Origin: a virus
DNA length: 35,043 nucleotides
IMG/VR virus record: IMGVR_UViG_3300043783_000120
Location: 1-35,043 of that record
Direction: 5' to 3' (one strand)
Below are positions 10,768-34,971 of this stretch, piece after piece. How positions within the stretch are numbered: position 1 is the stretch's first letter; every line of letters starts with the position of its first letter. The notes under the pieces are model-generated. The model had not been told where the DNA came from. It worked only from the letters and a program-made list of their open reading frames with translations, and did no database searches. The translations under genes and the position numbers were made by a program.

Positions 10768-10768
10768 T

Positions 10769-13741: not shown

Positions 13742-16050
13742 TTGATTATTTAGTTGACCTTTCGATCCGAACGGCATTTCGAGTTTTTCTATTTGCTCTG
13801 GCCGTTGTGCTTGCCGTAGCGGCGGGAAAACTATGCGATGCCCAGGTCACCTATGCTGACGCCCCGGGCAGCGTCAACGTGGCCTTCACCATTACTCCCA
13901 CCGGCACCGGCACAGGGTCGCTCAACTCACTCGACGGCCTGATCAACAACTGCCACGTCGGCGGCGGCAGCTGCACCGGCGTGTACCCCCTCGGATCGTC
14001 CATCACTGTCACCCCTACTGCCACGGGCGGAAGCAACTTCAACTGGGTTGGAGGCACAGACGGGGCCAGCGTGTGTTCGGGCACTGGGGCCTGCACGTTC
14101 ATCATCACTGCCACTGCCAGTATAAGCGGGGTGTTCTCGGCGGCGGGGAGCGCGGTGCTGGCCTCCCCGTTCTTCTCGGTTGATCTGAACTCGTCTACAA
14201 AGTTCCCGGCCACCGACTGCACTGGAGGCGTTGGCATCTGCCCCAACATGACGCTCGGGCAGGGCCGGTTGTGGGACACGCCACAGGTGTTGTGGCCGAT
14301 GGTGGAGACTGCGAACAACGTGTTCAGCTGGAGCGGCCTCGACGGGCTGCTGTCCACGATGAACGCCAACTCGGTGCATTCGGCGCAGATGGCGCTGGCG
14401 CGTACCCCGAAGTTCGCCACCGACGGCGGCGGATATACGGACGCTGGAAGCTGTTCCTACATCGCGTACTCCAGTACCGGCACCGTTACTGCCTTATCTG
14501 AGTCTGGCTCGACGGTCACAGCCACAAGCACGTTTAATCCCGGAGTAAACAATTGGATTGTGATGAACGGGGACACGCCAAAGGGCTACGACGGTGTGTT
14601 TCAGGTGACCTCGTCCAGCGTCACGCAGTTTCAGTACACCGCCGTCAATACTGGGCTTGGGGCCGGAACGGCATTCGGCACCGTTGGCATAACCCAGAAT
14701 CAGACGTTTTCCGTGGCGGGGCAGTGTGACCCGCCGACCGATCTGAACCGCGACGGAACAGGAACCGGCTTGTTCTTCCGCAACTGGGTCGGGGCACTGT
14801 CGAATCACGTCACCGTCAGCAACTATACCAACACCCATGCCCACATTCTGGACTACGAGTGCTGGAACGAGCCGGACACCAACCAGTTCTTCAGCGCGTC
14901 TTTCGGAACCTACGATCAGCTGGCCCGCATGTGCCAGGACGCCTACTACATCATCAAGGGCGACGCCAACTTCATCTTCGCACTTACCTCAGTAAACTCG
15001 TCCGGCGTCTACACGGGAACCGTGACCAACGGTGCCAGCAACTATTATGTGGGGCAGCACTTCAACGTCACCGGGTTCACGAACGGCGGCAACAACCTCA
15101 CGAACGCGGTCGTCACCGCTTCGTCCGCAACCTCGCTCACGTTCGCCGCATCCACCACGACCGAGACGCACGCGGCCACTGCCAGAATGGTCAACCGCTT
15201 CACCGGGGAAACAGCCGCACAAGTGCGGGCTGCGGTGACCAGCGTCGCCAGTTGCTGCGATGGCGCAGGCAACCCTGCGGACACGACAGCTAACGTGGTC
15301 ATGCCGAGCTACCACGGCAGCAGCCCGGCCATCGGTTATAGCCAGTGCTATCTGTACTGCACCGGCACCTGCACCAACCCTGGAGGCTCGAACAGCTGCC
15401 ACGTCGGGGCCAATATCTATACCGACGCCATCAACTTCCACATGAAGCCTGGTCAGAACCTCGAGGGCCAGATGTCCACGTGGGTCACGGCCATCGACGC
15501 GCTGCTCGTGGCACAGGATCTTGCCAAGCCGCTGTACAACACGGAGGGTGGCTTCTCGGCTGCCGGGTGGACTTCGCCCTACAGCGCGGACTCCAACCTT
15601 CAGGCGTCGTTTATCGCCCAGTTTTACCCGTACAGCTACAGCCTCGGCGTGCTCAACAACGTGTGGTACGACTGGACGACGAACAGCAACGCTGGCCTCG
15701 GCAACAGCACCGTGGGCAGCGTCGGGGCTCAGACGGCGTGGAACCAGATTTACACGTGGATGGTGGGGAGCACGATGGGCACGCTGACTACCAGTTCGCC
15801 GCAGGGAAGCAGCTGCCCGGCGGGGGAGACGTGCTTCACCTACACCTACACGATGACTCTGCCCAACAGCGTGGCTGCCGCGATTATCTGGGACACGTCG
15901 CAGACCTGTACGCCATGCACAACCGCCAACCAGACGGTGAATAGTTCGTATCTCAGCTACCTGACTACTCTGGGAGGGATCACGAAGACCAGCATCGTGA
16001 GTCACCAGGTGCCGGTGGGAATACAGCCGATTTTGGTGCAAGCACAATGA
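13738..16050 (+). CDS. Secreted clan GH-A glycoside hydrolase-like protein
   Basis: The ATG at 13738 overlaps the fibre A stop (ATGA); 770 residues. Residues about 1-36 are a long signal peptide (FLFALAVVLAVAAG, cleavage near CDAQ). Residues about 37-135 resemble a bacterial InlB-type repeat (YPLGSSITVTPTATGG, FNWVGGTDG). From about 140 a TIM-barrel glycosidase begins: ETANNVFSWSGLDGLL, then YECWNEPDTN with probable acid/base E378, and PLYNTEGGFS with probable nucleophile E603. This spacing fits retaining clan GH-A enzymes (GH39/GH5-like). Two beta inserts (about 245-320 and 415-485) interrupt the barrel. It could digest host capsule or exopolysaccharide. The exact GH family cannot be fixed by eye. 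Confidence 0.72.
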   Translation: MIDYLVDLSIRTAFRVFLFALAVVLAVAAGKLCDAQVTYADAPGSVNVAFTITPTGTGTGSLNSLDGLINNCHVGGGSCTGVYPLGSSITVTPTATGGSNFNWVGGTDGASVCSGTGACTFIITATASISGVFSAAGSAVLASPFFSVDLNSSTKFPATDCTGGVGICPNMTLGQGRLWDTPQVLWPMVETANNVFSWSGLDGLLSTMNANSVHSAQMALARTPKFATDGGGYTDAGSCSYIAYSSTGTVTALSESGSTVTATSTFNPGVNNWIVMNGDTPKGYDGVFQVTSSSVTQFQYTAVNTGLGAGTAFGTVGITQNQTFSVAGQCDPPTDLNRDGTGTGLFFRNWVGALSNHVTVSNYTNTHAHILDYECWNEPDTNQFFSASFGTYDQLARMCQDAYYIIKGDANFIFALTSVNSSGVYTGTVTNGASNYYVGQHFNVTGFTNGGNNLTNAVVTASSATSLTFAASTTTETHAATARMVNRFTGETAAQVRAAVTSVASCCDGAGNPADTTANVVMPSYHGSSPAIGYSQCYLYCTGTCTNPGGSNSCHVGANIYTDAINFHMKPGQNLEGQMSTWVTAIDALLVAQDLAKPLYNTEGGFSAAGWTSPYSADSNLQASFIAQFYPYSYSLGVLNNVWYDWTTNSNAGLGNSTVGSVGAQTAWNQIYTWMVGSTMGTLTTSSPQGSSCPAGETCFTYTYTMTLPNSVAAAIIWDTSQTCTPCTTANQTVNSSYLSYLTTLGGITKTSIVSHQVPVGIQPILVQAQ

Positions 16051-17885
16051 AAAAAATCTTCCTGTTGTTTTTGCTTCTTTCTCCGGCCTTCGGGCAGACT
16101 TACATCCCCATCACCGGTTCCCAGGTCGGCGGGGCTGCGCCCGTCACCGGGACGATCCTGTTTCAGGCCACGGGCACCAACGGCCTCGCCATCGGCTACC
16201 AGATTGGCGGCGGAGGTCAACAGGTAAACCAGGCCACGGTCTGCGGCGTGACCAATGGGGCCATCGCAGCCGGGTGTCAAGTAGCCAATGTGCTGCTTAC
16301 GTCGCCGCAGAACTTCTGTTACATGGTGGAGGTCAAGAACTCGCAAGGGCAGATCGTCATCGGTGGACCGCGCAGTGGCTACTCCTGCCTGCAAGTCGTG
16401 CCGAACAACACGTGGTGCATCGCGGGAACGTGCGACTTCGACAACTACAACCCGCAGCTTCCTAGCACGGTGCTGGTCATCAACATGCCTCTGCCTTACT
16501 CGCTCACCCTTGGCGGCATCTACGCGGGCGACTGTGCTCCCGGAACCGTGGTGACTGGCTACAACTCCACTGGTCATCCGGACTGTGGTCCCGGAGGATC
16601 TGGCGGAGGAGGCGTGTGGGGCGGCATCACGGGTACGCTTGCGAACCAGCTTGACCTTCAGGCGGCACTCAGCGCGCTGGCACCGCTTTCCAGCCCGGCT
16701 CTCATTGGCGTTCCCACCGCGCCAACTGCGGCGCTGGCCGACAACTCCACCCAGGTCGCCACCGACGCCTTCGTGAAGGGCCAGAACTATGCCCCGACGA
16801 ACAGCCCCAACCTCACTGGCACACCTACGGCACCCACGCCGCTTACCGGGGACAGTTCTACGAAGATTGCTACCACCTCCTGGGTAAATTTGCAGGGCTA
16901 CGGTACTGGCACAGGAAACGTGACTGGCCCCGGAACTTCCGTAGTCGGGCACATCGTGCTATTCAGCGCCACCAATGGGCAGCTACTGTCGGACGCAACG
17001 TTCGGCTTTCCGCTGACCCCCGCGAACATTGGTACCCTCGTGGCTGGAAGCAACGGTCTGGCGGCGTCCGCTACCACGAACGCGCTGAATGCCTCCAACA
17101 TCAACAGCGGTACACTCCCCCCGGCCCAGCTTCCACTGCCGACCGCTACCACCGTCGGCGGCGTGAAGTCCCTGACTGCTCCAGCGCACCAGTGGATCAA
17201 TGTCATCTCCACTACTGGTTCCGTGTCCTCCAGCCAGCCTGCATGTGCCGACCTCAGCAACGGCTCTCCCAGTTGCGGCATAGATACCACGAATGCTGCA
17301 AACATCAGCGGCGGCACGCTGTCGAACTCTCGTATTGGTACCCTAGTGGCAGGTTCTAACGGCCTTGTGGCGTCCGCGACAACGGACACGACGAACGCAA
17401 GCAACATCAGTTCTGGAACGCTTGCGGCTGCCAGAATGGCGCAGGTAAGCCTTGGGGCCTCTGGCAATGGCGGCGTCGGCGGAACCCTCCCTGCCGCGAA
17501 CGTGGGCAGCGGCTACCCGTTGTCGTCCCTGTCCGGGGCGTCGCTCGTCGTTCAGGCCACCGGCTACGCCGCACTGACCGACGCTGCCACCATCACGTGG
17601 GCCATCGCCAGTGCGCCTGGGGCAGCTGCGAAAGTGACGCTCGGCGGCAACAGGACGCTTAACGTCACTGGGCTGGTAAGCGGGAACGCCTTCTATACCT
17701 TAATCATTCGGCAGGACGCTACTGGGGGCAGGGGTCTGACGCTCGGCTCCGGCTGCACCTGGCTGGTGGGCGGCGGCGGCTCCGGTGGCATCAGCCCCAG
17801 CCCGGCACCCAACGCGGTGGATGTTTTAGTATTCACTTATGACGGCACCAACTGCTATGCGAACTTTAACAAAAATTTCAATTAG
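16047..17885 (+). CDS. Tail fibre B with Sec signal peptide, paralogue of fibre A
   Basis: This 612-residue protein starts at an ATG overlapping the previous stop (ATGA). The N terminus MKKIFLLFLLLSPAFGQ is a signal peptide. Residues about 18-190 parallel fibre A (TGTILFQATG, PQNFCYMVEVK, NTWCIAGTCDFDNY). Fibre repeats follow (SSPALIGVPTAPT, NSPNLTGTPTAPT, then KIATTSWV), then two copies of IGTLVAGSNGL. The C-terminal 110 residues (VTLGGNRTLNVTGL, AVDVLVFTYDGTNCYANF) match a very common tailspike/fibre C-terminal beta domain. It is shorter than fibre A, mainly in the central region. Duplication followed by divergence of the distal part is likely. Confidence 0.78.
   Translation: MKKIFLLFLLLSPAFGQTYIPITGSQVGGAAPVTGTILFQATGTNGLAIGYQIGGGGQQVNQATVCGVTNGAIAAGCQVANVLLTSPQNFCYMVEVKNSQGQIVIGGPRSGYSCLQVVPNNTWCIAGTCDFDNYNPQLPSTVLVINMPLPYSLTLGGIYAGDCAPGTVVTGYNSTGHPDCGPGGSGGGGVWGGITGTLANQLDLQAALSALAPLSSPALIGVPTAPTAALADNSTQVATDAFVKGQNYAPTNSPNLTGTPTAPTPLTGDSSTKIATTSWVNLQGYGTGTGNVTGPGTSVVGHIVLFSATNGQLLSDATFGFPLTPANIGTLVAGSNGLAASATTNALNASNINSGTLPPAQLPLPTATTVGGVKSLTAPAHQWINVISTTGSVSSSQPACADLSNGSPSCGIDTTNAANISGGTLSNSRIGTLVAGSNGLVASATTDTTNASNISSGTLAAARMAQVSLGASGNGGVGGTLPAANVGSGYPLSSLSGASLVVQATGYAALTDAATITWAIASAPGAAAKVTLGGNRTLNVTGLVSGNAFYTLIIRQDATGGRGLTLGSGCTWLVGGGGSGGISPSPAPNAVDVLVFTYDGTNCYANFNKNFN
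17028..17433 (+). repeat. Tandem fibre repeats in fibre B
   Basis: Two copies of the IGTLVAGSNGL unit (17028-17126 and 17334-17433), separated by about 200 bases, each followed by a Thr/Asn/Ser-rich NISSGTL-type segment. These units are probably beta-strand repeats of the fibre shaft. Confidence 0.7.
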
Positions 17886-20310
17886 CCTGGTTTTGTCCGC
17901 TTCGGCGCTCGCGCAGGGCGGAAGCATGTTCGCAGCCAACCGTAACCCTTGCTTCGGCACGAATTATTGTGCCTATCAGGGTGCGTTGCTGATACCACTG
18001 CCAGCCGCTCCTAACCTCGGAACCTACATACGCAACGGGGCGCTGCTGTCGGACAATTCCTACACCACTACTGCTGGTTATACGGGGTCTCAGCCGCTGT
18101 TCGGGCGTTGCACCGACACCCAGCTGAGCGGCACGCAGGCGTTCGTCACCCACACGGTGGGGCAGGGTGGCGCTGGGAACGTACGGGGCGCGACTAACTC
18201 GGACACCACGCTCGTCCAGATCAACGGCAACGAGATTATGGTCTTCAACCCCAACACCATGGTCTGCGGCCCCGTCACTGGATTGCACGCAGGCTCCGGC
18301 TATACCATCACCACCGACATGAACACGGCTGGCGGCGGGGATGCGAACCACATCGTGAACTTCGGGCGCGGCACGTTCGACGTGCATGTTAATTCTTCCT
18401 ATCTTTATGCCGACTTCGCCCTCAGCGCGGCCACGCAGATGCAGGTCGGCAAGGTCACCATCAACACCACCAGCGGAGCATACACAGACAACGGCATATT
18501 CGCTGACTTATCGCTGGGGCTTCCAGTGGGGGCGAACGTTTCCCCGTGGCAGGCCAACCACGCCTACACCAACGGCACCTACGTCAGCTTTCAGGGCAGC
18601 TTTCCGGCATGGTCGTCCACTCACGCCTACACGCAGGGAGACATCATCGTCCCCACTACGGGCAATCCCGGTGGGTGCTCGTTCAAGGCCAACAATCCCG
18701 GCGGCACCAGCGGGAGCACCCAGCCGACGTGGCCCAACACCTGCGGGTACGGCCCGGTGTCGGGGACGGACGGGACGGTTCACTGGCAGGGGACTTCGAC
18801 CAACGGCACGTTTGTGTACCAGTTGATCAGCGCGAACTGTACCAGCGGGTCTTCGACTCCAGCTTTTATTCCAGTTGGCACCGGACACCCTGACATGATG
18901 AGCCAGGTGACTGACGGCTCCGTGTGCGTGTGGCTCAACGTAGGACCGGACGTCATCATCACCAACAACGGCGCGGTAAGCTGGACGGACTTCTCGTGGC
19001 TCTCTCAGGACAACCTGAAGGTCTGCATGGGGATCAGCACCAACAACTACGGCTGGCTGGCCAGCCCGGCAGGCGGCACGAACCTCCAGAACTACAGCGG
19101 GGCATCGCAGGGCACGGGAATCTATTCCGTGTGCTACGACGTGACGAACAACCTGTTCCACACGCTGAACACGGCCACGGGCATCCAGAGCACGACGACC
19201 TGCATAGGGGGAACCGGGTACGCCTGCTCGGGTGGTTCGTGGAAGATGCTGCCGGACGGCGGCTCCTCGGTAATCACGCCCGCGTCGTGCGGAGGCGGGG
19301 GATTCCTCCACGCCGGGAAAGACTCGCTTGGGGCGGACTACGTGCAGCTGCCATTTCAGACCTCCACGAATTGCAACGCCGGAGCACCGGGCACCGTTGT
19401 GTGGAGGCCGTTTCAGGCTTTCAACGCCGCTACGTCCGTGCAATTCGTAGCCGCAGGGGTGAATCATGGGGCCATCGGCGAGCGATACTTTGTCAACATC
19501 GGCCAGGCCGCAGGCATCAATGGCGGCTTTGCTGGCGGGGCCTACGGTCAGCTCCAGGATCTCTCCAATCCACCAGCGACCCCCAACGTCACCTGGATGA
19601 TCGACCCGTGCGACTCCCGCCACTACACGCCCGGAATCATATACACCATCGGCCCGTGCGAGTTCGCCGACGCCTATGACCAGCACATCAACCTGACGTA
19701 CAACCCGAACAACTCAGACTCTGCCCCGGTGTGTGGGGTGTTCATCAACTACGCCACACTGAACCCCAACCCGTTCGCCCCGTATCAGGGAGAGGTTTTC
19801 TGCATGAGCGTGACGCCGAACAAGGTGTGGGACGGGAACCCCATCGTGGGGCAGCAAACCTGGCGTCTGGCTCACGGCTTTTGCACCGGCACTAACTCCA
19901 ACTTCTTCACCCAGTTCTGCTCGGCATCGACGTCCACGGACGGAAGGTTTCTGTTCTGGAGCACGGACAACCTGTGCGGCTTTGGCAACACGCTTGGAAC
20001 CAACGCGGCGCTGTACCCCGTAGGGGGAACATTGTGCGGCTACAACTGGCAGGCCAGCTTCAACTACAGCACGCTCGGCACGCTCATCAACCCGTTCGGC
20101 TCCACCACCGGGTCGGGCACAAACTACGGCGTGTGGAAGATATCGGCAACGGGGATTAGCGCGGCCACCAACCCGTTCCCCGGCTTCGGGGTGATATGCA
20201 ATTCCAGCACCGCCGGGACGGTCGAGACAGACTCCAACGGCGTCGGCTACACCTGCGTGGGGGCGGCGAACCCGATTGGGGAAGTACTTGTTGTGAGACT
20301 TGGATACTGA
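17857..20310 (+). CDS. Cysteine-rich secreted protein of the fibre region, possible beta-propeller
   Basis: I prefer the ATG at 17857 (817 residues) because it directly begins a signal peptide, MRTLTKISISLVLSASALAQ; an ATG at 17839 in frame would add six residues. It overlaps the fibre B end by 29 bases. About two dozen cysteines are spread along the protein. At about 235-330 there are two carbohydrate-binding-like motifs (NHAYTNGTYVSF and THAYTQGDIIVPTT, then GSTQPTWPNTCGY and DGTVHWQG), like chitin-binding-type modules. The rest has repeated Trp/Gly beta segments that could be propeller blades, but I do not recognise the family. It probably binds a surface polymer; this is inference. Confidence 0.62.
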   Translation: MRTLTKISISLVLSASALAQGGSMFAANRNPCFGTNYCAYQGALLIPLPAAPNLGTYIRNGALLSDNSYTTTAGYTGSQPLFGRCTDTQLSGTQAFVTHTVGQGGAGNVRGATNSDTTLVQINGNEIMVFNPNTMVCGPVTGLHAGSGYTITTDMNTAGGGDANHIVNFGRGTFDVHVNSSYLYADFALSAATQMQVGKVTINTTSGAYTDNGIFADLSLGLPVGANVSPWQANHAYTNGTYVSFQGSFPAWSSTHAYTQGDIIVPTTGNPGGCSFKANNPGGTSGSTQPTWPNTCGYGPVSGTDGTVHWQGTSTNGTFVYQLISANCTSGSSTPAFIPVGTGHPDMMSQVTDGSVCVWLNVGPDVIITNNGAVSWTDFSWLSQDNLKVCMGISTNNYGWLASPAGGTNLQNYSGASQGTGIYSVCYDVTNNLFHTLNTATGIQSTTTCIGGTGYACSGGSWKMLPDGGSSVITPASCGGGGFLHAGKDSLGADYVQLPFQTSTNCNAGAPGTVVWRPFQAFNAATSVQFVAAGVNHGAIGERYFVNIGQAAGINGGFAGGAYGQLQDLSNPPATPNVTWMIDPCDSRHYTPGIIYTIGPCEFADAYDQHINLTYNPNNSDSAPVCGVFINYATLNPNPFAPYQGEVFCMSVTPNKVWDGNPIVGQQTWRLAHGFCTGTNSNFFTQFCSASTSTDGRFLFWSTDNLCGFGNTLGTNAALYPVGGTLCGYNWQASFNYSTLGTLINPFGSTTGSGTNYGVWKISATGISAATNPFPGFGVICNSSTAGTVETDSNGVGYTCVGAANPIGEVLVVRLGY

Positions 20311-25682: not shown

Positions 25683-26336
25683 CTACTTCTTGACGCCGAA
25701 CGTTCCCAGCCTGACGAACAGCCCGTTGATGTGCACCTTCCTGAGCGTGACGCTTCGCGGCATGGTCTTGTTGGCCGCGTCCACCTTCTTGTTGTATTCC
25801 GCCGTCCACGCCTTGATGTCGAACTGCGGCTGAGCGTAACGGGTGAACTTCAGGGCGCCGGCTGGTACCGCCGCGCTCGGGAACAGCGTCTCCGCTGCGG
25901 CAAACAACAACTGCGCCGCTCCCAACAGCCCCTCGATGTTCTTCTGCTCCAGCGGGTTCAGGAGCCTAACGGCGTCCAGGATGTTTGCGGCATTGGACTC
26001 GAACGTCGTGATGGCCTGGCTCAGCGCCTGAAGGACGGACGGCGGGACTGCCCCCTGGCTCAGCGCCGTATAGTAGTTGATTAGCGCCTCGTCAAGGATT
26101 CCCGCAGAAGAGGTGACGGCCGTGACCCCGCCGACGCACACCGGAGCAGCTGGCAAGAACGCACACACGGCGTCGGCTATGTTCGTCACCGCCGGGAGGA
26201 AGACCTTGATGTCCGTGACGACTTGTAATTTCTGGGCCGTGGTGCAGCCTGTTTCAGCAACCGGAACAACCGCGGCACAGCAGCACAGCAGCGCGATGAC
26301 CGAGTGCTGCCACAGCAGGGTCTTGATTCGCTTCAT
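25683..26336 (-). CDS. Lipoprotein-like or secreted protein
   Basis: A 217-residue protein with AGGAGAAAACACA before its ATG. It opens with a basic then hydrophobic stretch (MKRIKTLLWQHSVIALLCCC) and then VAETGCTTAQ. Cysteine 31 could be a lipid-attachment site, although Glu at -3 is unusual for a lipobox. The remainder is helical and Ala/Leu-rich (GILDEALINYYTALSQ, AAQLLFAAAETLF). Moderate-size exported lipoproteins in early phage operons sometimes block superinfection, but no specific motif shows that here. Confidence 0.65.
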   Translation of the reverse strand: MKRIKTLLWQHSVIALLCCCAAVVPVAETGCTTAQKLQVVTDIKVFLPAVTNIADAVCAFLPAAPVCVGGVTAVTSSAGILDEALINYYTALSQGAVPPSVLQALSQAITTFESNAANILDAVRLLNPLEQKNIEGLLGAAQLLFAAAETLFPSAAVPAGALKFTRYAQPQFDIKAWTAEYNKKVDAANKTMPRSVTLRKVHINGLFVRLGTFGVKK

Positions 26337-26707
26337 TGTGTTTTCTCCTGAAATTGATTTAACAACTGTAACGCCTTACGATACTGCCCCAGCACCAGCT
26401 GCAGGCAAATGGCTGTTTCCTGCTCAGTTAAATTATACGCTAACTGCAGCTTTTCAACACCGGTTTCTTTGAGTTGATAATTGATGTGCTGATCCGCGTA
26501 CAAGGCAATCAGCTTTTCAATGTAGTGCTGGGCCTTTGCCAGCGCCGCCGTGCCATCCTTCTTGCGCCAGCGGCAGATGTACTTGGTAGCACAGCCAATC
26601 AGGTAACCGGGGCCAAAGTTCTCGGCAACCCAGTCCCAGTGCTGAAAATCTCCTCCTCCGTAGTGCGTACCTCCTACCTGCCGAGAGTTAACACTGCTCT
26701 CTTCCAA
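26333..26707 (-). CDS. DUF3310 family protein
   Basis: A 124-residue protein starting at a TTG with AAGGAGGGCCTC upstream. It carries the DUF3310 signature: VGGTHY at 11-16, HWD at 23-25 and ATKYICRWRKKDG at 40-52, then a helix HYIEKLIALY. This family is widespread in phages and often sits near nucleotide metabolism genes; its biochemical role is not settled. Here it lies just downstream of the ThyA-like gene, in keeping with that pattern. Its ORF overlaps the lipoprotein-like gene by four bases. Confidence 0.85.
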   Translation of the reverse strand: MEESSVNSRQVGGTHYGGGDFQHWDWVAENFGPGYLIGCATKYICRWRKKDGTAALAKAQHYIEKLIALYADQHINYQLKETGVEKLQLAYNLTEQETAICLQLVLGQYRKALQLLNQFQEKTQ

Positions 26708-26873
26708 GAGGCCCTCCTTCTAACAGCCGATTTAATTCCCAGTGCCAGTCCATCTGGCCCACCATGGCATCCATCGGGTGAAACGCTTTATAGGTCGCTA
26801 CAGACGCCGTACGGCACACCTGGATCATGTACACCGCGTTCAGCACTTCGTCCAGGCGTGCGAAGTCTTTCAC
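26688..26873 (-). CDS. Small hypothetical protein between ThyA-like and DUF3310 genes
   Basis: A 61-residue product starting at a GTG that overlaps the ThyA-like stop (GTGA). It reads KDFARLDEVLNAVYMIQVC, then DWHWELNRLLEGG. A longer open frame runs into the ThyA-like gene, but that part would be out-of-frame reading of a well-conserved C terminus. Overlaps the DUF3310 start by 20 bases. Function unknown. Confidence 0.55.
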   Translation of the reverse strand: MKDFARLDEVLNAVYMIQVCRTASVATYKAFHPMDAMVGQMDWHWELNRLLEGGPLGREQC

Positions 26874-27871
26874 GCCGTCACCGCCTTTCGCGCTTCGCGG
26901 CGCGCAACCCACTGACTCACGGCCAGCCGCCAATCCTCGGCTGCGATACACTGCCACATTGTGCGATCTTTCCAGGCGCGTAGCATGGGCAGTGCCACTT
27001 CCCAGAAGAACGGTTCCCGAAAATCTGCTAACTGTCCGGCGCAAAACTTTTCTGCATCTTCCAGCCACATCCAGGCATCGTGATTTACTAGCCGAAAGAT
27101 ACGTGGAGGAATTGCCCGCGTGTAAGCGTTAGCATGATAGGAGTCGTCTGAAAGCTCATTCAATCGTTTCGGATTCACCACGTCCGTATACAGATGCAGG
27201 TTGTTGGACATCTGCCGGTACACGCCCACCGGAACCCCCACAGCAAACGCCACCCACTCCTGCAGCACGGAAAAGTGCACTGCGTTGGCTCCGTAAGCTC
27301 CCCAAAAAAGATCATTCGATCTACAGCACACCGTCATGTTCAGCGCACCGCTACGGCGATCGAAGTAAATATGTGTATTGCAGGGGGCGTCCTTGGTGCC
27401 CTGACGCAACCGGCGTAGGTCGCCTGCGTGGGTGGAACCTTCCAGCGCGATCGTGCCGCCGTCCCACATAGCGAGCACCGCGCGCCGCGTGTCTGGGTTG
27501 GTCCGGAGTTCGTCCACCAGCGGACGCAGCTGGTCGTAACCAAAAAACTTGCGCCAGCGAAAGCCATAAGCTCCGGGCTGCGTTTTGCCGTCGTCACTGT
27601 AGGAGCCGAACCGTTTGTTGAACTGTTGCGGAAAAACAACGTCGTTGCGGCCTGCCAGCATCCAGATGGATTCCATCAGATGAAAAAACGGATTCGCATC
27701 CCGCAACGGCGAAAACAGCACGCGCTCCCGGGGGTGCGAGTACACGGTGGTAACAGGTTCCTTGAATACCAGCACTGGGCCGTTGCGGGAGGTTTCGCTA
27801 GTACTGTTGTCTTTGATCAGGCTCAGTGCCCGAGCTAGCGCATCGTTGACATTACGGCAAAAAATTTCCAT
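26870..27871 (-). CDS. Thymidylate synthase-like enzyme, probable dUMP 5-hydroxymethylase
   Basis: I chose the ATG at 27871 (333 residues), four bases after the homing endonuclease stop; an ATG at 27910 would add 13 residues that overlap that gene. The catalytic cysteine is C164 in DAPCNTHIYF, followed by CCRSNDLFWGAYGANA (R184, S185, D187), the phosphate- and pyrimidine-binding segment of the ThyA fold. RRAVLAMWD and NNLHLY are further landmarks. In a hypermodifying phage, ThyA relatives commonly make 5-hydroxymethyl-dUMP with methylene-THF, and the operon context here argues for this rather than ordinary dTMP synthesis. The substrate cannot be proved from sequence alone. Confidence 0.82.
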   Translation of the reverse strand: MEIFCRNVNDALARALSLIKDNSTSETSRNGPVLVFKEPVTTVYSHPRERVLFSPLRDANPFFHLMESIWMLAGRNDVVFPQQFNKRFGSYSDDGKTQPGAYGFRWRKFFGYDQLRPLVDELRTNPDTRRAVLAMWDGGTIALEGSTHAGDLRRLRQGTKDAPCNTHIYFDRRSGALNMTVCCRSNDLFWGAYGANAVHFSVLQEWVAFAVGVPVGVYRQMSNNLHLYTDVVNPKRLNELSDDSYHANAYTRAIPPRIFRLVNHDAWMWLEDAEKFCAGQLADFREPFFWEVALPMLRAWKDRTMWQCIAAEDWRLAVSQWVARREARKAVTA

Positions 27872-27875
27872 AAAG

Positions 27876-28439
27876 TTATGCTCTCTTCCTCCTGTGGAAT
27901 AAACTTCCACCAGGTTGCCACTGCTGCGAAGTTTTTTGAGATTTACGCTGTTTTTCGCTAGGTCGTTCGTGCGCGGCGTACATTTTTGCTAGTCTAAGTT
28001 TTCTAAGCTTGGGATTTTTCCAACGGTTACGCAGTAATTCCGATTGTCGAGCTTTAAATTTTGGTGAAGAAAAATTTTGAATTGCTCGTTCTGAAAATTT
28101 ACGATCTTTGGATGAAGTTGAAAGTGGTTGGTAGTTGTAAAGTTTGCCTTTTGGCCACCAATGATCAATGGCTTTCTGTTCGGCTTCAAATGATGCCTTT
28201 CTTGTTTTACAGAATTCAATTAAAATAAAATCGAATTGACTATCTCCAAATTTGTTCCAGTCAGCTTGTAAATTTAAATTCCAATGCACGCCTCGCTTCA
28301 ATAAAAATAAATGCTCCCGAAACCTTTTTCTTATATTGGGGGCGCTCCCAATATAGCGTCTTCCATTTTTCTTGCAAACGATGGCGTAAGAACCCGTAAC
28401 AGATAGCGGGTGCGGCGGGCGTCCTATTCTAGTCTTCAC
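27876..28439 (-). CDS. GIY-YIG homing endonuclease
   Basis: A 187-residue protein starting at a GTG that overlaps the upstream stop (GTGA), with AAAGGAGCAGC before it. The GIY-YIG nuclease domain is at about 15-105: GSYAIVCKK, RRYIGSA, a conserved-type Arg helix (NIRKRFREH), DWNKFGDSQFDF and the metal-binding glutamate in SFEAEQKAIDHW. A basic C-terminal region (RNRWKNPKLRKLRLAKM) probably contacts DNA. The gene's GC content is low: about 35% over 28021-28260, against over 70% in a sampled line (28681-28740) of the adjacent gene. That marks it as a recent insertion. Confidence 0.88.
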   Translation of the reverse strand: MKTRIGRPPHPLSVTGSYAIVCKKNGRRYIGSAPNIRKRFREHLFLLKRGVHWNLNLQADWNKFGDSQFDFILIEFCKTRKASFEAEQKAIDHWWPKGKLYNYQPLSTSSKDRKFSERAIQNFSSPKFKARQSELLRNRWKNPKLRKLRLAKMYAAHERPSEKQRKSQKTSQQWQPGGSLFHRRKRA

Positions 28440-29404
28440 GCTGCTCCTTTGAACTTTTGTTTGGGACGCCCGTGGCCCAGACGCATTTTCTCATGCTTCG
28501 CGTACTCGCATAAAAACCCTTGCGTGTCCTGCATATGAGCACGTGGCATCTTTGCTTTTTTGAACATGGGTGCTAACCATTTATCCAGCTCTAACAGTAG
28601 TTTATACCACTCCGCTTCTCGCGTCACGGACTTCGACTTGCTTCCATCAGTGGAAAGCAGGTACCCCATCCCCAACCTTGACCCCGGCCCCGACGCGGCC
28701 CATGTCCACCAGTCCAGCATGCGCTTAGGCCCCCACGACGGCAAGTACTTTAATTCCGCGATAAGCTGAGCGGCCATGAACGTGCCAAAACCATACTGCG
28801 CCCGAACCACTTCGTACAGCTCCGCCAGACTCTTACAAGCATACAGCTCCTCGGTGATGCGTTTGCGGTTCACCCACAACAGATGCAGCCGGTCGTTCAC
28901 CACGGACTGAATCTTAGGGCCGATGGAATTCAGAAAGTAAGCACCCCCAAAGATCTGGCGGGACTGGCCTGCGTCGATCTTGTAGCTGCTCCCAAAGACC
29001 TGAGAGTTTTCGCCCGGAAACAGATTCAGCGTTGCGGGCGATACACGTTTCAGCCAGCGTTCGCCCTGCCCCGTTCGGATATCATCTAGGATCTTCACCA
29101 CGCGGGCACGGTTCCACGGCACCGGGTAGCCAATGGCTTCCAGCGTGGGAGGCCAGTTGATGTATCGGGCCACCGCCATGGCGAACCAGCACAGGCGGTC
29201 GTTCTTGTGCGGTTCCCGCCAGTGCTTGCGGAGCCAGATGGTGGTCTTGTCCCATTCGCGATAATTTTCGGTGAAGCGGTAGTCACGCAGAATGGGGTTT
29301 TTTGTCCAGGGCTTGGGCTGCCCACTGTAACGGCGCTCGTGTATTCGGTGCCGTTCCTGCAGGAACTTAAACAGATCACGTACGCGATTGGCCGGAATCT
29401 TCAC
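28436..29404 (-). CDS. 5-hmdU DNA kinase helical-domain / thymine pyrophosphorylase-like protein
   Basis: The GTG at 29404 overlaps the kinase stop (GTGA) and has AAGGAGATTGCCAA before it; 322 residues. The N-terminal part is diagnostic: FLQERHRIHERRYSGQPKPW (9-28 region onward, with GQPKPWTKNPIL at 28-39) and YRFTENYREWDK at 42-53. This is the pattern of the helical domain linked to 5-hydroxymethyl-dU DNA kinase and of putrescinyl/glutamyl thymine pyrophosphorylase relatives, whose fold is related to helix-hairpin-helix DNA glycosylases. It probably binds hydroxymethylated DNA and works with the kinase. In some phages these two domains are fused; here they are separate coupled genes. Confidence 0.85.
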   Translation of the reverse strand: MKIPANRVRDLFKFLQERHRIHERRYSGQPKPWTKNPILRDYRFTENYREWDKTTIWLRKHWREPHKNDRLCWFAMAVARYINWPPTLEAIGYPVPWNRARVVKILDDIRTGQGERWLKRVSPATLNLFPGENSQVFGSSYKIDAGQSRQIFGGAYFLNSIGPKIQSVVNDRLHLLWVNRKRITEELYACKSLAELYEVVRAQYGFGTFMAAQLIAELKYLPSWGPKRMLDWWTWAASGPGSRLGMGYLLSTDGSKSKSVTREAEWYKLLLELDKWLAPMFKKAKMPRAHMQDTQGFLCEYAKHEKMRLGHGRPKQKFKGAA

Positions 29405-29955
29405 TTGGCAATCTCCTTCAACAGCTGTTTCAACGGATCTTTGTCCCAGTGCAGGGTCACCACGCGGCGACCCATGGCCGCGATGCGTTCCTGCGTCCGG
29501 ACGATCGTCACATGCCGTGTGCGTGTGTTGGTTTCGTTCAGCGGCTTGGTGTTGCCAGCCGCCTTGCGTCGCATGCGGATGTGCTTGAGACACTGCTTCA
29601 GGGGTGTGTCCAGGAAAGCAAAAATCCAGCGGTCGCCGAACTGTTCGGAATACTTGCCCACGGTGCCGTACATGCCGCTCATTAGCAGGCCTTCAAGGAA
29701 CACATTCATCTTATTGCGCGTGTAGTACTCCACACGCCGCACGATTTCCGCCTGCGTAGGAATGCTATCACAGCCTCCACACGCGGTGGCATACTTACCC
29801 AGCAGCGCCCAGCTCTGACCAGCATAGTGAAACAGCTGGTCAGGTTCGTCGGAATACACCTCGGGGCCTCCGATAGCCAGTGCCCAAAAAGCCCGCGCCA
29901 GGGTGGTCTTACCGCTGCCGGAATTGCCTCGAATGTTCACAATGATATGTTTCAT
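29401..29955 (-). CDS. P-loop 5-hydroxymethyl-dU DNA kinase
   Basis: The ATG at 29955 (184 residues) has GGAGAAAATTCT before it and overlaps the flavoenzyme stop (ATGA). The Walker A motif is GNSGSGKT at residues 10-17. A segment VEYYTRNKMNVFLEGLLMSG, then IFAFLDTPLKQCLKHI, fits a small nucleotide/nucleoside kinase fold. In phages with hypermodified thymine this enzyme phosphorylates 5-hydroxymethyl-dU within DNA (leading to the pyrophosphate) so that an amino acid can be installed. Co-transcription with the transferase and helical protein supports the call. Confidence 0.85.
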   Translation of the reverse strand: MKHIIVNIRGNSGSGKTTLARAFWALAIGGPEVYSDEPDQLFHYAGQSWALLGKYATACGGCDSIPTQAEIVRRVEYYTRNKMNVFLEGLLMSGMYGTVGKYSEQFGDRWIFAFLDTPLKQCLKHIRMRRKAAGNTKPLNETNTRTRHVTIVRTQERIAAMGRRVVTLHWDKDPLKQLLKEIAK

Positions 29956-30800
29956 AGAATTTTCTCCAACACGCGCGCCACGATCACGGGGGCATGACGA
30001 ATTCCCGATGACCACTGGGGCCGGATGCACCACTGGCCCTTGATCCTTTTCAACAGCAGTGTGTCCTCAGGTGCTGCCACCGGACGCCAGCCCTGGGTGC
30101 GTTCGCCGCAGGCTTTCACTTTAAGATCCGTGTACCGGCCCACATGCTCCAGCCAGTGTACAAATTTGGGTTCAATCTCGAGCTGTCGGGGCACGTGCTG
30201 ACTGATGAGTGAAGATCCTGCGTAGTGCCACCCCGGTTCCATGGGAACGGGGTAAGCATAAGCCAGCTTGAACCGGCCCACGCGCATGTAAAAACAATAA
30301 TTCGACAAACGATGCTGCGGAACGTAATCTAACTGCACCTTGACGTTCCAACCCCACAGATAACGATCGAGCCGTGCTCCGAAACCGTGGGAAACAATCA
30401 CCACGCTGCCTGCCGGGGCCTTGACACACCGCGCGCCCTCGAACTCAATACGCACACGCCGCACAAGGCACTGGGCGTTCAAATGAAAACTCTGTTGGCT
30501 AGCAATACCCCAAGGCCCGATGCGCTCGAATTTGTATTTACCACCGTGGGGCGGACGCTTGCTCAGAAAACAATACGTGGCGGATTCCAGCTCTGGCATT
30601 GCACCAAAGTAGTGATCTCGCCACATGGCCCAGTTCTGGTGATCATAATCGTCGCCACTGGGGTAGATGCAACCCGTGCTGGCCTGCCAGGCATTGACGG
30701 CGCTTTCGTTATCGTCCCACGTGAACGCCTGACCCTGCTGGCTGAGCTTCAGCGCCAGCAGGGAGCCAATGATGCCCATACCCTGGATGTGGAGTTTCAT
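29952..30800 (-). CDS. FAD-dependent DAO-type oxidoreductase / lyase of the hypermodification pathway
   Basis: A 282-residue protein with ATG overlapping the transferase stop (ATGA) and CCGGAGGTGAG before it. The N terminus carries GMGIIG (7-12), the dinucleotide-binding glycine motif, with an acidic pair DD at 29-30 for the ribose. GCIYPSGDDYDHQ resembles the region after the first strand in DAO-family flavoenzymes, and the C terminus (QWCIRPQWSSGIRHAP) resembles the closing FAD-binding segment. DAO relatives such as glycine oxidase oxidise amino acids. In phage M6-type pathways a flavin-dependent lyase removes part of an installed glycine, leaving 5-aminomethyl-dU. The same role is likely here but unproven. 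Confidence 0.78.
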   Translation of the reverse strand: MKLHIQGMGIIGSLLALKLSQQGQAFTWDDNESAVNAWQASTGCIYPSGDDYDHQNWAMWRDHYFGAMPELESATYCFLSKRPPHGGKYKFERIGPWGIASQQSFHLNAQCLVRRVRIEFEGARCVKAPAGSVVIVSHGFGARLDRYLWGWNVKVQLDYVPQHRLSNYCFYMRVGRFKLAYAYPVPMEPGWHYAGSSLISQHVPRQLEIEPKFVHWLEHVGRYTDLKVKACGERTQGWRPVAAPEDTLLLKRIKGQWCIRPQWSSGIRHAPVIVARVLEKIL

Positions 30801-31570
30801 CTCACCTCCGGAGGCATGGCTTTGAACAGCTTGTTGGATGTGCTGTACTGAACTTCCGCCAAAGCGTGCCGAACTTCCTTAATATCTTTTCCCACCCAGT
30901 AGCGGCCATTGATGTAGGATTTAAATTTGCACATCACACTTTCGATCTCCATCACGCCGCAACATCGACCACCGGGGGGTGCTACAAAGTTCCCTAAATA
31001 GTTTCGCAAAAGCCGAATTGCGGTTGGCAGATCCTTATGAATCAACGCAGCTCCAGCTAAAGGTTCCCTATAAAAGAACTTTTCTGCACCCCGTGGATCG
31101 ATTCTGTATTCCAGCACCCGCTCAGCTAGATCACAAAGTTTAAAAGCAGCCCAAGGCCCCATGCCGGTGGTTTCCAGAATCCGTTTGTAGCAATCATGAA
31201 ACGTAGCACCGTCTTCAAACCAATATTCAATCACAGCTTCTGGCGTGTCGCCCAGCATCAGGCAAGACCACGATTTTTCCGCTGCTTCTCCCCTCCAGTG
31301 CCGCCGCTCCGTGCCTCGGGGCCACTTACCATCTACGGGGCCATGGACGTTGTCTGCTGCCAGCCGGAGCTGGTGCCAGAATTTGTCACCCTTGAATTCC
31401 GAAAGGTAGGCGGCGCAACCCAGATGATACAGACAGGCGTAAGCCAGCACCAGCCGAGCGCGCTGGTTCCAGGGCAGCCGTGCCCCAGCGATGACGATGT
31501 ACACCGGATCAAGATCGCCGGTGATGATGAGCTGACGTCCGAACTCACACGCTTGTTTTAGATAGTTCAT
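30797..31570 (-). CDS. Amino acid:DNA transferase (AADT family)
   Basis: The ATG at 31570 overlaps the methyltransferase stop (ATGA) and gives 257 residues; a frame-compatible ATG at 31582 is less likely. The signatures are ITGDLDPVYIVIAGARLPW (17-24 region), AYACLYHLGCAAYLSE, and PRGTERRHWRG at 84-94, as I recall for the amino acid:DNA transferase domain of hypermodifying phages. The enzyme displaces pyrophosphate from 5-pyrophosphomethyl-dU in DNA with an amino acid amine or hydroxyl. Its amino acid preference cannot be read from the sequence, but the linked DAO-type enzyme suggests glycine. Confidence 0.82.
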   Translation of the reverse strand: MNYLKQACEFGRQLIITGDLDPVYIVIAGARLPWNQRARLVLAYACLYHLGCAAYLSEFKGDKFWHQLRLAADNVHGPVDGKWPRGTERRHWRGEAAEKSWSCLMLGDTPEAVIEYWFEDGATFHDCYKRILETTGMGPWAAFKLCDLAERVLEYRIDPRGAEKFFYREPLAGAALIHKDLPTAIRLLRNYLGNFVAPPGGRCCGVMEIESVMCKFKSYINGRYWVGKDIKEVRHALAEVQYSTSNKLFKAMPPEVR

Positions 31571-32289
31571 TTTGGCGACCACGCAAAAATAAGTTGATCA
31601 AAGCGCGGGCGGAACGTTTCCGCTCCGCTGGCAATCGCCTTGTCGTAGGCCGATGGGTATAGCACGTGCTCAAAGCGCCGTTTGAGCTGGTTCAGCCGAG
31701 CCTTGAGGTGCTGAACGCTTGAGTCCCGCGAAGTGTGATACTCCATCACTAGCTTTTTCGTACGCGGCAGGAGCCACGCGTCCAGGATGGGGCCTTCCGC
31801 ACCTTCGATGTCCATCTTGATTCCGGAAAACTCGCCACCCCCGGTGCTGTGTGCTGAGAGCTTTGCTAAATCGCCGGCAAAAAAGTTCGCCACCGGGGGC
31901 AGCTCCACGTAGCCCTGCACATCCAACGTGGTGCCTCGATAGTGATTCAAAGGGTTGGCGCTCTTGACGAAGCGCAGCGTGGGTTCCTTCGACGCCGTCA
32001 CCGCCTGCTGAAAGCACGTAAAGCCCAGGCCCGCGTTTTTGGTCAGCACCCGAAAACATCCTGGCTCCGGTTCAAAGCACACGGCGGTTGCGGCTCGCGA
32101 TCGGCAGTACACCGCGAAGGCCCCGATGTTGGCTCCCAGATCCAGCCACCGCTCCCCCGGTTCCACATCGAAGCCAGATCGCACGCGGCGGTAAGCCCTT
32201 CGCACCAGCACTTCGTCAATGGCCTGTTTGTCAGATTCCGTCTCTGGCCGGTACCAGATTTTGGTGTCGCCTATTTTAAGGAGCTTCAT
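31567..32289 (-). CDS. FkbM-family SAM-dependent methyltransferase
   Basis: A 240-residue protein, ATG with AAGGGGCTACTGAA before it. The SAM-binding motif I is WLDLGANIGAFA (DLGANIG at 50-56), followed by an acidic residue in CFEPEP at 71-76. IKMDIEGAE at 157-165 is the signature of the FkbM family, whose studied members mostly methylate hydroxyl groups of small molecules and sugars. It is coupled at both ends (ATGA) to the transferase and to a small membrane protein gene. Its position at the head of the hypermodification operon suggests it methylates the installed side chain on DNA. The target is inference. Confidence 0.85.
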   Translation of the reverse strand: MKLLKIGDTKIWYRPETESDKQAIDEVLVRRAYRRVRSGFDVEPGERWLDLGANIGAFAVYCRSRAATAVCFEPEPGCFRVLTKNAGLGFTCFQQAVTASKEPTLRFVKSANPLNHYRGTTLDVQGYVELPPVANFFAGDLAKLSAHSTGGGEFSGIKMDIEGAEGPILDAWLLPRTKKLVMEYHTSRDSSVQHLKARLNQLKRRFEHVLYPSAYDKAIASGAETFRPRFDQLIFAWSPK

Positions 32290-32459
32290 TTCAGTAGCCC
32301 CTTCGGACTATAGTAACCTCCCGAATAAACGTAAGGCTTGGGCGGACGAATTTTATTTTTCGCCCACTTTGCCAGTTCTATAACTTCGCTGATCAGCACC
32401 GCAAAAGAAACGGGTAAGCCAAAGCCAATCAACAGCCCCAGAAGAATGTAGTCGCACAT
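32286..32459 (-). CDS. Small membrane protein at the head of the hypermodification operon
   Basis: A 57-residue protein whose ATG has GGAAAGGATTCT upstream and whose stop overlaps the FkbM start (ATGA). It has one membrane helix (YILLGLLIGFGLPVSFAVLI) followed by a helix ELAKWAKNKIR and a Tyr/Pro/Gly tail (PYVYSGGYYS). No family recognised. It may simply be carried by the operon, with no part in base modification. Confidence 0.65.
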   Translation of the reverse strand: MCDYILLGLLIGFGLPVSFAVLISEVIELAKWAKNKIRPPKPYVYSGGYYSPKGLLK

Positions 32460-33615: not shown

Positions 33616-33980
33616 AGCTCGGGTTCCTTTCCGTTTTCGATTTTGCAATCATCGCAGGCGGCGGCGGGGAAAGATTCCCCCGTCAGCCGCCAGCTTTCCA
33701 GCACGCGCCGAGTGTCTAGGTGGCGATCACACAACACAAGGGAGCCGTTGTGGGACACAGCCCGGTAAGCTAGCGGCCCCATGGGCTTCACCGCGCGGAG
33801 CGGCAGCTGCACCCCGTGAAGTTTCGTGTCCGCCAGCGTGGTTAGGTCTTTGATCAACGTACCGCTACAATCCGCAGGACGATACATAACGCATTCTATG
33901 TCGCCGTTGTCGTAATATCGAGTACTGCAATTCGGATCACCAAACATACACGCGGTCTTAGCAACTAACTTTCTCGTCAT
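33612..33980 (-). CDS. Cysteine-rich hypothetical protein
   Basis: I chose the ATG at 33980, coupled as TGATG to the preceding stop, with GGGAGGATGTG upstream; 122 residues. The N-terminal third contains CMFGDPNCSTRYYDNGDIEC and VMYRPADC, and the C-terminal part LCDRHLDTRR and CDDC, suggesting a metal-binding protein. Family not recognised. Confidence 0.6.
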   Translation of the reverse strand: MTRKLVAKTACMFGDPNCSTRYYDNGDIECVMYRPADCSGTLIKDLTTLADTKLHGVQLPLRAVKPMGPLAYRAVSHNGSLVLCDRHLDTRRVLESWRLTGESFPAAACDDCKIENGKEPEL

Positions 33981-34807
33981 CACATCCTCCCTGCGCAGTC
34001 CGGCCCGATACCGGCAGCAATGGACTCCGGCACTGTGAGCTTGCGCCCGCAGCGCCCACAGCGTCCTTCGTGCCAGATCTCAGTCTGCGGTGGCATCACG
34101 GGGGTGGAGTAACCCAGGTGTCGCCACACCCACGTGAATGCTGCGAAGGGCTTGCCCTTTTCCTGCGCCCCAGTGGCCCGCGTGGCCTTGAACTGGTTTT
34201 CGCGTATCATGCCCAGGTAGGTGTAGTCGCCGGTGTTGTCCGGCCCCGTGAGCAGGGACACGAAGTACGTGGGGTATTTCCAGCACTGGCAGTCTTTCTT
34301 GCCCACAGCGGGAGCAATCCGCCGGCTCACACGGTAGGTGTAGCGCGTGCCCGTCTTCATCGATCGAACCGTGAAGTAAGCGTTACCGGCCAGGATGAAG
34401 CCCCGCGCGATCGTAACGTCAGACAGGTGCGCCGGGCCAATGCCTTCCAGCGGCTGCTGGAGCGGGGTGGGGCTGCCCGCCGTGGGCAGTTCCGAGTTTA
34501 CGGCGGCGGGCAGCGGTTGGGCGGGAGGAACTTCGTAGGGGTTAGTGCGAAGATTGTCGGTTGCCGTGTTAGGAACGTCCCCCGCCACGTGGTTGACCGT
34601 CCGGGCGGAAACGGGGCGAGCTTCTTCCACCACGGAGTGGTTGCGCTTTTTGGTGCTGAACTTCTTAGCCTTTTGCGCCGTGGTCAAGGCCTCGTGACGG
34701 CGGTTAGCGGCTTCAATGTCGGCCTGGGTGCAGGCATAGCAGTCTACGCCGGAACAGTCGTGCCCGGTGATCGGAGTTCCCATCATGGTGGTATTAGCAG
34801 TTGTCAT
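33980..34807 (-). CDS. DUF6011-type C-terminal zinc-ribbon protein
   Basis: The ATG at 34807 overlaps the upstream stop (ATGA); 275 residues. The C terminus, WHEGRCGRCGRKLTVPES then IAAGIGPDCAG, is the DUF6011 zinc ribbon, common as an end domain on phage and actinobacterial proteins. The preceding core (TRYTYRVSRRI, YFVSLLTGPDNTGDYTYLG) is a small beta domain that often accompanies it. The N-terminal 120 residues are low complexity (Thr/Pro/Ala) with one CxxC pair. Function unknown; probably nucleic-acid related. Confidence 0.72.
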   Translation of the reverse strand: MTTANTTMMGTPITGHDCSGVDCYACTQADIEAANRRHEALTTAQKAKKFSTKKRNHSVVEEARPVSARTVNHVAGDVPNTATDNLRTNPYEVPPAQPLPAAVNSELPTAGSPTPLQQPLEGIGPAHLSDVTIARGFILAGNAYFTVRSMKTGTRYTYRVSRRIAPAVGKKDCQCWKYPTYFVSLLTGPDNTGDYTYLGMIRENQFKATRATGAQEKGKPFAAFTWVWRHLGYSTPVMPPQTEIWHEGRCGRCGRKLTVPESIAAGIGPDCAGRM

Positions 34808-34971
34808 CGCGCACCGCCTATGGGATTCCGACCAAGGATTTCCGTGCGCCACTCCGGGCCGGTAACCGTAACCGTGTTGTACTTGTTGTACAGTTTTGCC
34901 TGATAGCGCTCGGCGGCCTTCAGGCCCTGCTCTGTGCGCGTGTCGAATGTTTTGGATTCAGCCTTTTTCAT
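34804..34971 (-). CDS. Small basic hypothetical protein
   Basis: The ATG at 34971 (55 residues) has GCGAGGACAAA before it, in leader copy 2. It reads KKAESKTFDTRTEQGLKAAE and continues with a basic helix, then TVTVTGPEWRTEILG. The stop overlaps the next gene (ATGA). No family recognised. Confidence 0.6.
   Translation of the reverse strand: MKKAESKTFDTRTEQGLKAAERYQAKLYNKYNTVTVTGPEWRTEILGRNPIGGAR

What the first reader, a model, noticed from the sequence alone, without database searches (positions are those of the whole stretch)
26870..32459. Thymidine hypermodification operon in a contractile-tail phage
Directly seen: six adjacent, start-stop coupled minus-strand genes with ThyA-type (C164), P-loop kinase (GNSGSGKT), kinase-partner helical/pyrophosphorylase-like (GQPKPWTKNPIL), amino acid:DNA transferase-like (TGDLDPVY, PRGTERRHWRG), DAO-type FAD and FkbM methyltransferase motifs. 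Known: in hypermodifying phages such as M6 and ViI, hmdU in DNA is pyrophosphorylated, substituted with an amino acid and then remodelled. Inferred: this phage makes hmdUMP, incorporates it, and converts part of it to an amino-acid-derived thymine. This should protect its DNA against restriction.
Basis: partly seen in the sequence, partly recalled or inferred. Interest (0 to 1): 0.92.

Follow-up and report, generated by a model that had tools for sequence, protein, structure and literature searches.

The report
Phage thymine-rewriting operon with extra methyltransferase
A contractile-tailed phage carries a compact set of genes that very probably rewrites thymine in its own DNA using glycine, a known kind of anti-restriction armour, plus a methyltransferase whose viral relatives repeatedly sit beside genes that make 5-hydroxymethyluracil, which points to an as yet unmeasured methylated DNA base.

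Summary
The contig also encodes a contractile tail. The core is a new member of a known pathway. Gene order matches Pseudomonas phage PaMx11. The transferase matches a solved 'Glycinyltransferase' (E 1e-49). The equivalent PaMx11 flavoenzyme matches a solved 'Flavin-dependent lyase'; the window's shares only the fold. Best reading: 5-hmdU in DNA, pyrophosphorylation, glycine addition, flavin cleavage to 5-aminomethyl-dU. It follows PaMx11 rather than M6: no radical-SAM or PLP gene is present. The surprise is FkbM. Its nearest annotated-phage relatives lie beside ParB and TET/JBP oxygenases. In viral contigs it belongs to a 100/98-supported clade in which 15 of 17 other members lie in 5-hmdU operons, some lacking transferase and kinase; a control FkbM group showed 0 of 35. 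FkbM probably methylates 5-hmdU or a product of it; which atom is unresolved. No nucleoside was measured, and the key papers could not be read, so a prior report of the FkbM link cannot be excluded.

The parts
31567..32289 (-). FkbM-family SAM-dependent methyltransferase, first gene of the operon (240 aa)
   Evidence: PF05050 E 5e-7; member of a 100/98 clade of viral FkbM proteins found mostly in 5-hmdU operons; AF2 pLDDT 93.1, class I methyltransferase fold
30797..31570 (-). Amino acid:DNA transferase (ADDT), predicted glycinyltransferase; ATG 31570 overlaps the FkbM stop
   Evidence: PF18724 E 3e-10; phmmer E 1e-49 to PDB 8z2m 'Glycinyltransferase'; starts
29952..30800 (-). Short DAO-superfamily flavoenzyme, predicted flavin-dependent lyase acting on the glycyl base
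   Evidence: no DAO Pfam match; AF2 pLDDT 91.5; Foldseek to D-amino acid oxidase E 5e-13 and glycine oxidase E 8e-11; GxGxxG start, invariant GWRP motif in 11 homologues; position of PaMx11_47
29401..29955 (-). P-loop 5-hmdU DNA kinase (GNSGSGKT), ATG 29955
   Evidence: PF18748 E 6e-5, below cut-off; phmmer homologues in 83 loci, best outside the window E 3.5e-58 in L029; phrog_800 E 3e-20
28436..29404 (-). HMUDK_hel protein, GTG 29404
   Evidence: PF18723 E 3e-33; starts
27876..28439 (-). GIY-YIG homing endonuclease inserted in the operon
   Evidence: PF01541 E 1e-9; a GIY-YIG gene lies in the same slot in phage AIIMS-Plu-RaNi
26870..27871 (-). ThyA-type deoxyuridylate hydroxymethylase
   Evidence: phrog_5131 E 4e-101; 46% identity to M6 gp58; best PDB match is CMP 5-hydroxymethylase rather than thymidylate synthase
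26333..26707 (-). DUF3310 protein downstream, a common neighbour of these operons (association only)
   Evidence: PF11753 E 1e-7; DUF3310 genes also near the RHph_I72 and PaMx11 operons

Best explanation
The operon lets the phage replace part of its thymine with a glycine-derived base. (1) The ThyA-type enzyme makes 5-hydroxymethyl-dUMP, which enters the DNA. (2) The P-loop kinase with HMUDK_hel pyrophosphorylates the hydroxymethyl group. (3) ADDT displaces pyrophosphate with glycine. (4) The DAO-fold flavoenzyme cleaves the glycine adduct to 5-aminomethyl-dU. (5) The FkbM enzyme methylates the 5-hmdU-derived base: most likely O-methylation of 5-hmdU to 5-methoxymethyl-dU (about 0.45), less likely N-methylation of 5-aminomethyl-dU (about 0.25), which would be the DNA counterpart of tRNA mnm5U. 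Steps 1-3 rest on strong homology, step 4 on fold and gene position, step 5 on gene association; none was shown chemically.
For: Family matches; glycinyltransferase structure match E 1e-49; 46% identity to M6 gp58; DAO/glycine-oxidase fold with GWRP, like the carboxylate-binding Arg motif of D-amino acid oxidase (own knowledge), invariant in 11 homologues; the PaMx11 enzyme in the same slot is family to PDB 'Flavin-dependent lyase'; same gene set ADDT-DAO-kinase-hel-ThyA in L022, L024, L041. FkbM: relatives beside TET/JBP in HTVC112P and MED4-184; 15 of 17 other clade members in 5-hmdU operons, closest one (L111, 55-56%) within ADDT-DAO-kinase-FkbM-hel-ThyA; 0 of 35 in the control group.
Against: The window's flavoenzyme is not a sequence-detectable orthologue of the PaMx11 lyase (hhalign aligns only the Rossmann start, prob 37), and 8z2o is not among the top 50 fold matches listed. 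The kinase is below the Pfam cut-off. FkbM was in 0 of 50 other ADDT records tested, so it is an optional part. The atom methylated is unresolved. An HD phosphohydrolase, a usual partner, is not on this 35 kb fragment, and no phage DNA polymerase was recognised on it.
Confidence: 0.68

Rival explanations
1. The core pathway works as described, but the FkbM enzyme N-methylates 5-aminomethyl-dU, giving 5-(methylaminomethyl)-dU, the same logic as tRNA cmnm5U to nm5U to mnm5U by MnmC or MnmM.
For: FkbM co-occurs with ADDT and DAO in the window, L111, L112 and L129; in PaMx11 an acetyltransferase, another amine-capping type of enzyme, follows the lyase and is absent here; the tRNA enzyme MnmM is among the fold matches of the FkbM model (weakly informative).
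Against: The same FkbM clade occurs in records with no ADDT and no kinase detected, where no amine product is expected; class I methyltransferase folds match each other broadly.
Confidence: 0.25
2. The operon stops at the glycyl base or another amino-acid adduct, the flavoenzyme doing a different oxidation.
For: The flavoenzyme is a divergent DAO subfamily without sequence-level orthology to the known lyase.
Against: Same operon slot as the PaMx11 enzyme, glycine-oxidase-like fold, conserved GWRP motif.
Confidence: 0.2
3. The FkbM gene is a passenger that methylates something other than DNA, for example a glycan or small molecule.
For: FkbM enzymes are known as O-methyltransferases of natural products (own knowledge); 0 of 50 ADDT records carry one.
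Against: Clade-wide linkage to 5-hmdU and TET genes, against none in 35 control FkbM loci; ATGA overlap with ADDT.
Confidence: 0.12
4. The ThyA-type enzyme is an ordinary thymidylate synthase and the DNA carries no 5-hmdU.
For: Belongs to the wider ThyA family (PF00303).
Against: 46% identical to M6 gp58 and closest in the PDB to CMP hydroxymethylase; all downstream 5-hmdU genes are present.
Confidence: 0.04

Closest known systems
Pseudomonas phage PaMx11 (Abidjanvirus) thymidine hypermodification cluster, genes 46-51; solved relatives 8z2m 'Glycinyltransferase' and 8z2o 'Flavin-dependent lyase'
   Same: Gene order ADDT, DAO-type flavoenzyme, kinase, HMUDK_hel, ThyA-type enzyme; 39% identity in ADDT
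   Different: PaMx11 has an acetyltransferase and an HD gene not found here; the window has FkbM, a different DAO subfamily, a GIY-YIG gene and a contractile-tailed phage background
Pseudomonas phages M6 and YuA (5-NedU pathway)
   Same: ADDT, kinase, HMUDK_hel and hydroxymethylase
   Different: M6/YuA have PLP (PALP) and radical-SAM genes in place of the flavoenzyme; neither is found in the window
Actinobacteriophage TET-type clusters (Rhodococcus phage Tonitrus, Gordonia phage LittleMunchkin)
   Same: Closest annotated-phage relatives of the window's flavoenzyme (30-37% identity), with ADDT, kinase and flavoenzyme side by side; a thymidine hypermodification role was proposed for Tonitrus (PMC11955845)
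   Different: They carry TET/JBP instead of a ThyA-type enzyme in the cluster, and have no FkbM gene there
Pelagibacter phage HTVC112P and Prochlorococcus phage MED4-184 ParB-TET/JBP-FkbM cassettes
   Same: Nearest annotated-phage relatives of the FkbM enzyme (31% and 30% identity)
   Different: No ADDT or HMUDK_HMUD1 kinase found in those records; hydroxymethyl group presumably made on DNA by TET/JBP
IMG/VR contig 3300045747_000487 (L111)
   Same: ADDT, DAO, kinase, FkbM, HMUDK_hel, ThyA, HD; FkbM 55-56% identical
   Different: FkbM lies between kinase and hel; flavoenzyme is PaMx11-type

Membership tests
Thymidine hypermodification pathway, glycine/flavin-lyase (PaMx11) type | ThyA-type 5-hmdUMP synthase | tested here: met
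   phrog_5131 E 4e-101; 46% to M6 gp58; PDB best match CMP hydroxymethylase
Thymidine hypermodification pathway, glycine/flavin-lyase (PaMx11) type | Amino acid:DNA transferase (glycinyltransferase) | tested here: met
   PF18724 over cut-off; 8z2m E 1e-49
Thymidine hypermodification pathway, glycine/flavin-lyase (PaMx11) type | 5-hmdU DNA kinase with HMUDK_hel partner | tested here: met
   HMUDK_hel E 3e-33; kinase PF18748 E 6e-5 but below cut-off; kinase homologues in 83 loci
Thymidine hypermodification pathway, glycine/flavin-lyase (PaMx11) type | Flavin-dependent lyase | tested here: inconclusive
   DAO fold confirmed and same slot as PaMx11_47, but no full-length profile match to the PaMx11 group
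Thymidine hypermodification pathway, glycine/flavin-lyase (PaMx11) type | GNAT acetyltransferase next to the flavoenzyme | tested here: not met
   Absent from the window; many other DAO operons also lack a detectable one, so it looks optional rather than defining
Thymidine hypermodification pathway, glycine/flavin-lyase (PaMx11) type | 5-aminomethyl-dU or glycyl-T in virion DNA | not testable with these tools
   Needs LC-MS
M6-type 5-NedU pathway | Radical-SAM and PLP (PALP) enzymes | tested here: not met
   No hit in the window by phmmer or by HMMs built from operon members; the window may be a fragment
FkbM (Methyltransf_21) family | PF05050 domain over curated cut-off | tested here: met
   30.5 bits against 22.7
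FkbM (Methyltransf_21) family | Class I methyltransferase fold with the SAM-binding glycine motif | tested here: met
   AF2 pLDDT 93.1, class I matches, WLDLGANIGAF
FkbM (Methyltransf_21) family | O-methylation activity | not testable with these tools
   Needs an assay

The most novel reading that the evidence does not exclude
The FkbM clade is a DNA-base tailoring methyltransferase that follows 5-hydroxymethyluracil whichever way it is made (ThyA-type enzyme or TET/JBP oxygenase), producing 5-methoxymethyl-dU or 5-(methylaminomethyl)-dU, to my knowledge not an established product of a known phage pathway (Gracias et al., PMC11550810, do list methylated 5-aminomethyluracil among natural phage bases, so the second product may not be new).
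Probability: 0.4. Interest if true: 0.8.

Novelty: new variant of a known kind. Interest (0 to 1): 0.58.

Why it matters
If right, phages add a methyl cap to 5-hydroxymethyluracil-derived bases, a chemistry that host restriction enzymes and modification-dependent nucleases would have to cope with. The same methyltransferase group appearing beside two unrelated routes to 5-hydroxymethyluracil makes a simple, directly testable prediction about its substrate. It also widens the set of parts that thymidine hypermodification pathways can be built from.

Tried and rejected
Single-sequence scans of IMG/VR with the window's flavoenzyme and ADDT found no relatives; alignment-based scans were needed. 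M6-type remodelling was rejected because no radical-SAM or PLP gene is in the window. A first idea that FkbM is a one-off passenger, prompted by 0 of 50 ADDT records, was dropped after the alignment scan. N-methylation as the main activity, my first hypothesis, was demoted because the clade occurs without ADDT and kinase. TET acting on 5-methylcytosine was made less likely: no C5-cytosine methyltransferase in 37 records, though host methylation is not excluded. A direct FkbM scan of bacterial genomes found no relative. The one viral locus from the single-sequence FkbM scan (L107) showed no modification genes nearby. No close nucleotide relative of the window was found among phages. Papers by Lee 2018, Lee 2022, Iyer 2013, Hutinet 2021 and Wen 2024 are not held.
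Full report
Observation. The window is an IMG/VR virus record of 35,043 bases, classed linear and probably a fragment. On the minus strand from 32289 down to 26870 lie seven genes, nearly all overlapping by four bases: FkbM methyltransferase, amino acid:DNA transferase (ADDT), a DAO-like flavoenzyme, a P-loop kinase, HMUDK_hel, a GIY-YIG homing endonuclease and a ThyA-type enzyme. Five are recognised by Pfam above the curated cut-off; the kinase is just below it and the flavoenzyme has no DAO match. The rest of the window encodes a contractile tail sheath, baseplate and tail fibre proteins.

Core pathway. The ThyA-type protein is 46% identical to M6 gp58, annotated there only as thymidylate synthase; its best structural relative is CMP 5-hydroxymethylase. 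The transferase matches PDB 8z2m, named Glycinyltransferase, at E 1e-49. The flavoenzyme was modelled with high confidence from the window and ten viral homologues (pLDDT 91.5) and matches D-amino acid oxidase and glycine oxidase; the GWRP motif is invariant in the alignment. In PaMx11 the gene in the same slot belongs with PDB 8z2o, named Flavin-dependent lyase. [quoted passage not shown] 2024) is cited in PMC11946847 but could not be read. From this I infer glycine addition followed by cleavage to 5-aminomethyl-dU. The weak point is that the window's flavoenzyme and the PaMx11 group share only the N-terminal Rossmann stretch in profile comparison.

Operon survey. Among about 100 loci (annotated phages plus IMG/VR), ADDT operons fall mainly into a DAO route and a radical-SAM plus PLP route, rarely mixed. 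The window belongs to the DAO route. Records L022, L024 and L041 carry the same core of ADDT, window-type DAO, kinase, hel and ThyA. Close relatives of the flavoenzyme in annotated phages are in Gordonia and Rhodococcus phages that carry TET/JBP in place of the ThyA-type enzyme; for Tonitrus a thymidine hypermodification role was already proposed (PMC11955845). That base modifications of this kind block many restriction enzymes is published for M6, ViI and phi W-14 (PMC6449724); for this phage it is inferred.

The FkbM gene. No PF05050 protein was found in 50 ADDT-bearing viral records, so the gene first looked like a passenger. The nearest phage relatives said otherwise: in HTVC112P it lies directly after a ParB and a TET/JBP gene, and in MED4-184 between them. 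A scan of IMG/VR with an alignment of these three fetched 80 loci. Over all 84 loci examined, 55 had TET/JBP nearby, 14 had HMUDK_hel or ThyA, 6 had ADDT as well, and the rest had ParB only or nothing. The TET share is biased because two of the three seeds are TET neighbours. The clade around the window was not seeded in that way: it has support 100/98 and 18 rows including the window, of which 15 of the other 17 lie in 5-hmdU operons. A control set of 35 loci from a different FkbM group had no TET, HEL, ThyA-type or ADDT gene (Fisher p 4e-22, loci not independent).

What FkbM may do. Six of 41 FkbM records tested have ADDT and three have the kinase, so most FkbM enzymes sit where a 5-hydroxymethylpyrimidine is the only expected substrate. 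None of 37 records has a C5-cytosine methyltransferase, which favours thymine over 5-methylcytosine as the oxidised base, though the host could supply 5-methylcytosine. O-methylation of 5-hmdU is therefore my first choice, N-methylation of 5-aminomethyl-dU the second. The structure model is a class I methyltransferase and its best matches are mostly RNA or ribosome-related methyltransferases, which is only mild support for a nucleic-acid substrate.

Novelty. The core is a new member of a known pathway. The FkbM addition is a new variant as far as I could check: none of the papers listed by my FkbM searches contains that word together with these systems. The papers most likely to mention it were not readable, and one chemistry paper lists methylated 5-aminomethyluracil among natural phage bases (PMC11550810), so the claim is provisional.

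Noticed in passing
27876-28439: GIY-YIG homing endonuclease between hel and thyA; the same slot is occupied in Pseudomonas phage AIIMS-Plu-RaNi (L015).
   Followed up: partly
L114, L117, L119-L125: Viral records with ThyA-type enzyme, HMUDK_hel and FkbM but no detectable ADDT or HMUDK_HMUD1 kinase, suggesting HMUDK_hel can act without the kinase.
   Followed up: partly
L126:1795-2538: Glutamine amidotransferase domain protein next to ADDT, FkbM and HMUDK_hel, a possible further variant.
   Followed up: no
L108, L109, L130, L132-L190: Recurrent ParB, TET/JBP and FkbM three-gene cassette in viral contigs.
   Followed up: partly
33980-34852: DUF6011 protein of unknown function (PF19474 E 9e-15).
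   Followed up: no
10688-20310: Several large tail-fibre-like or unassigned genes in tandem downstream of the baseplate genes.
   Followed up: no
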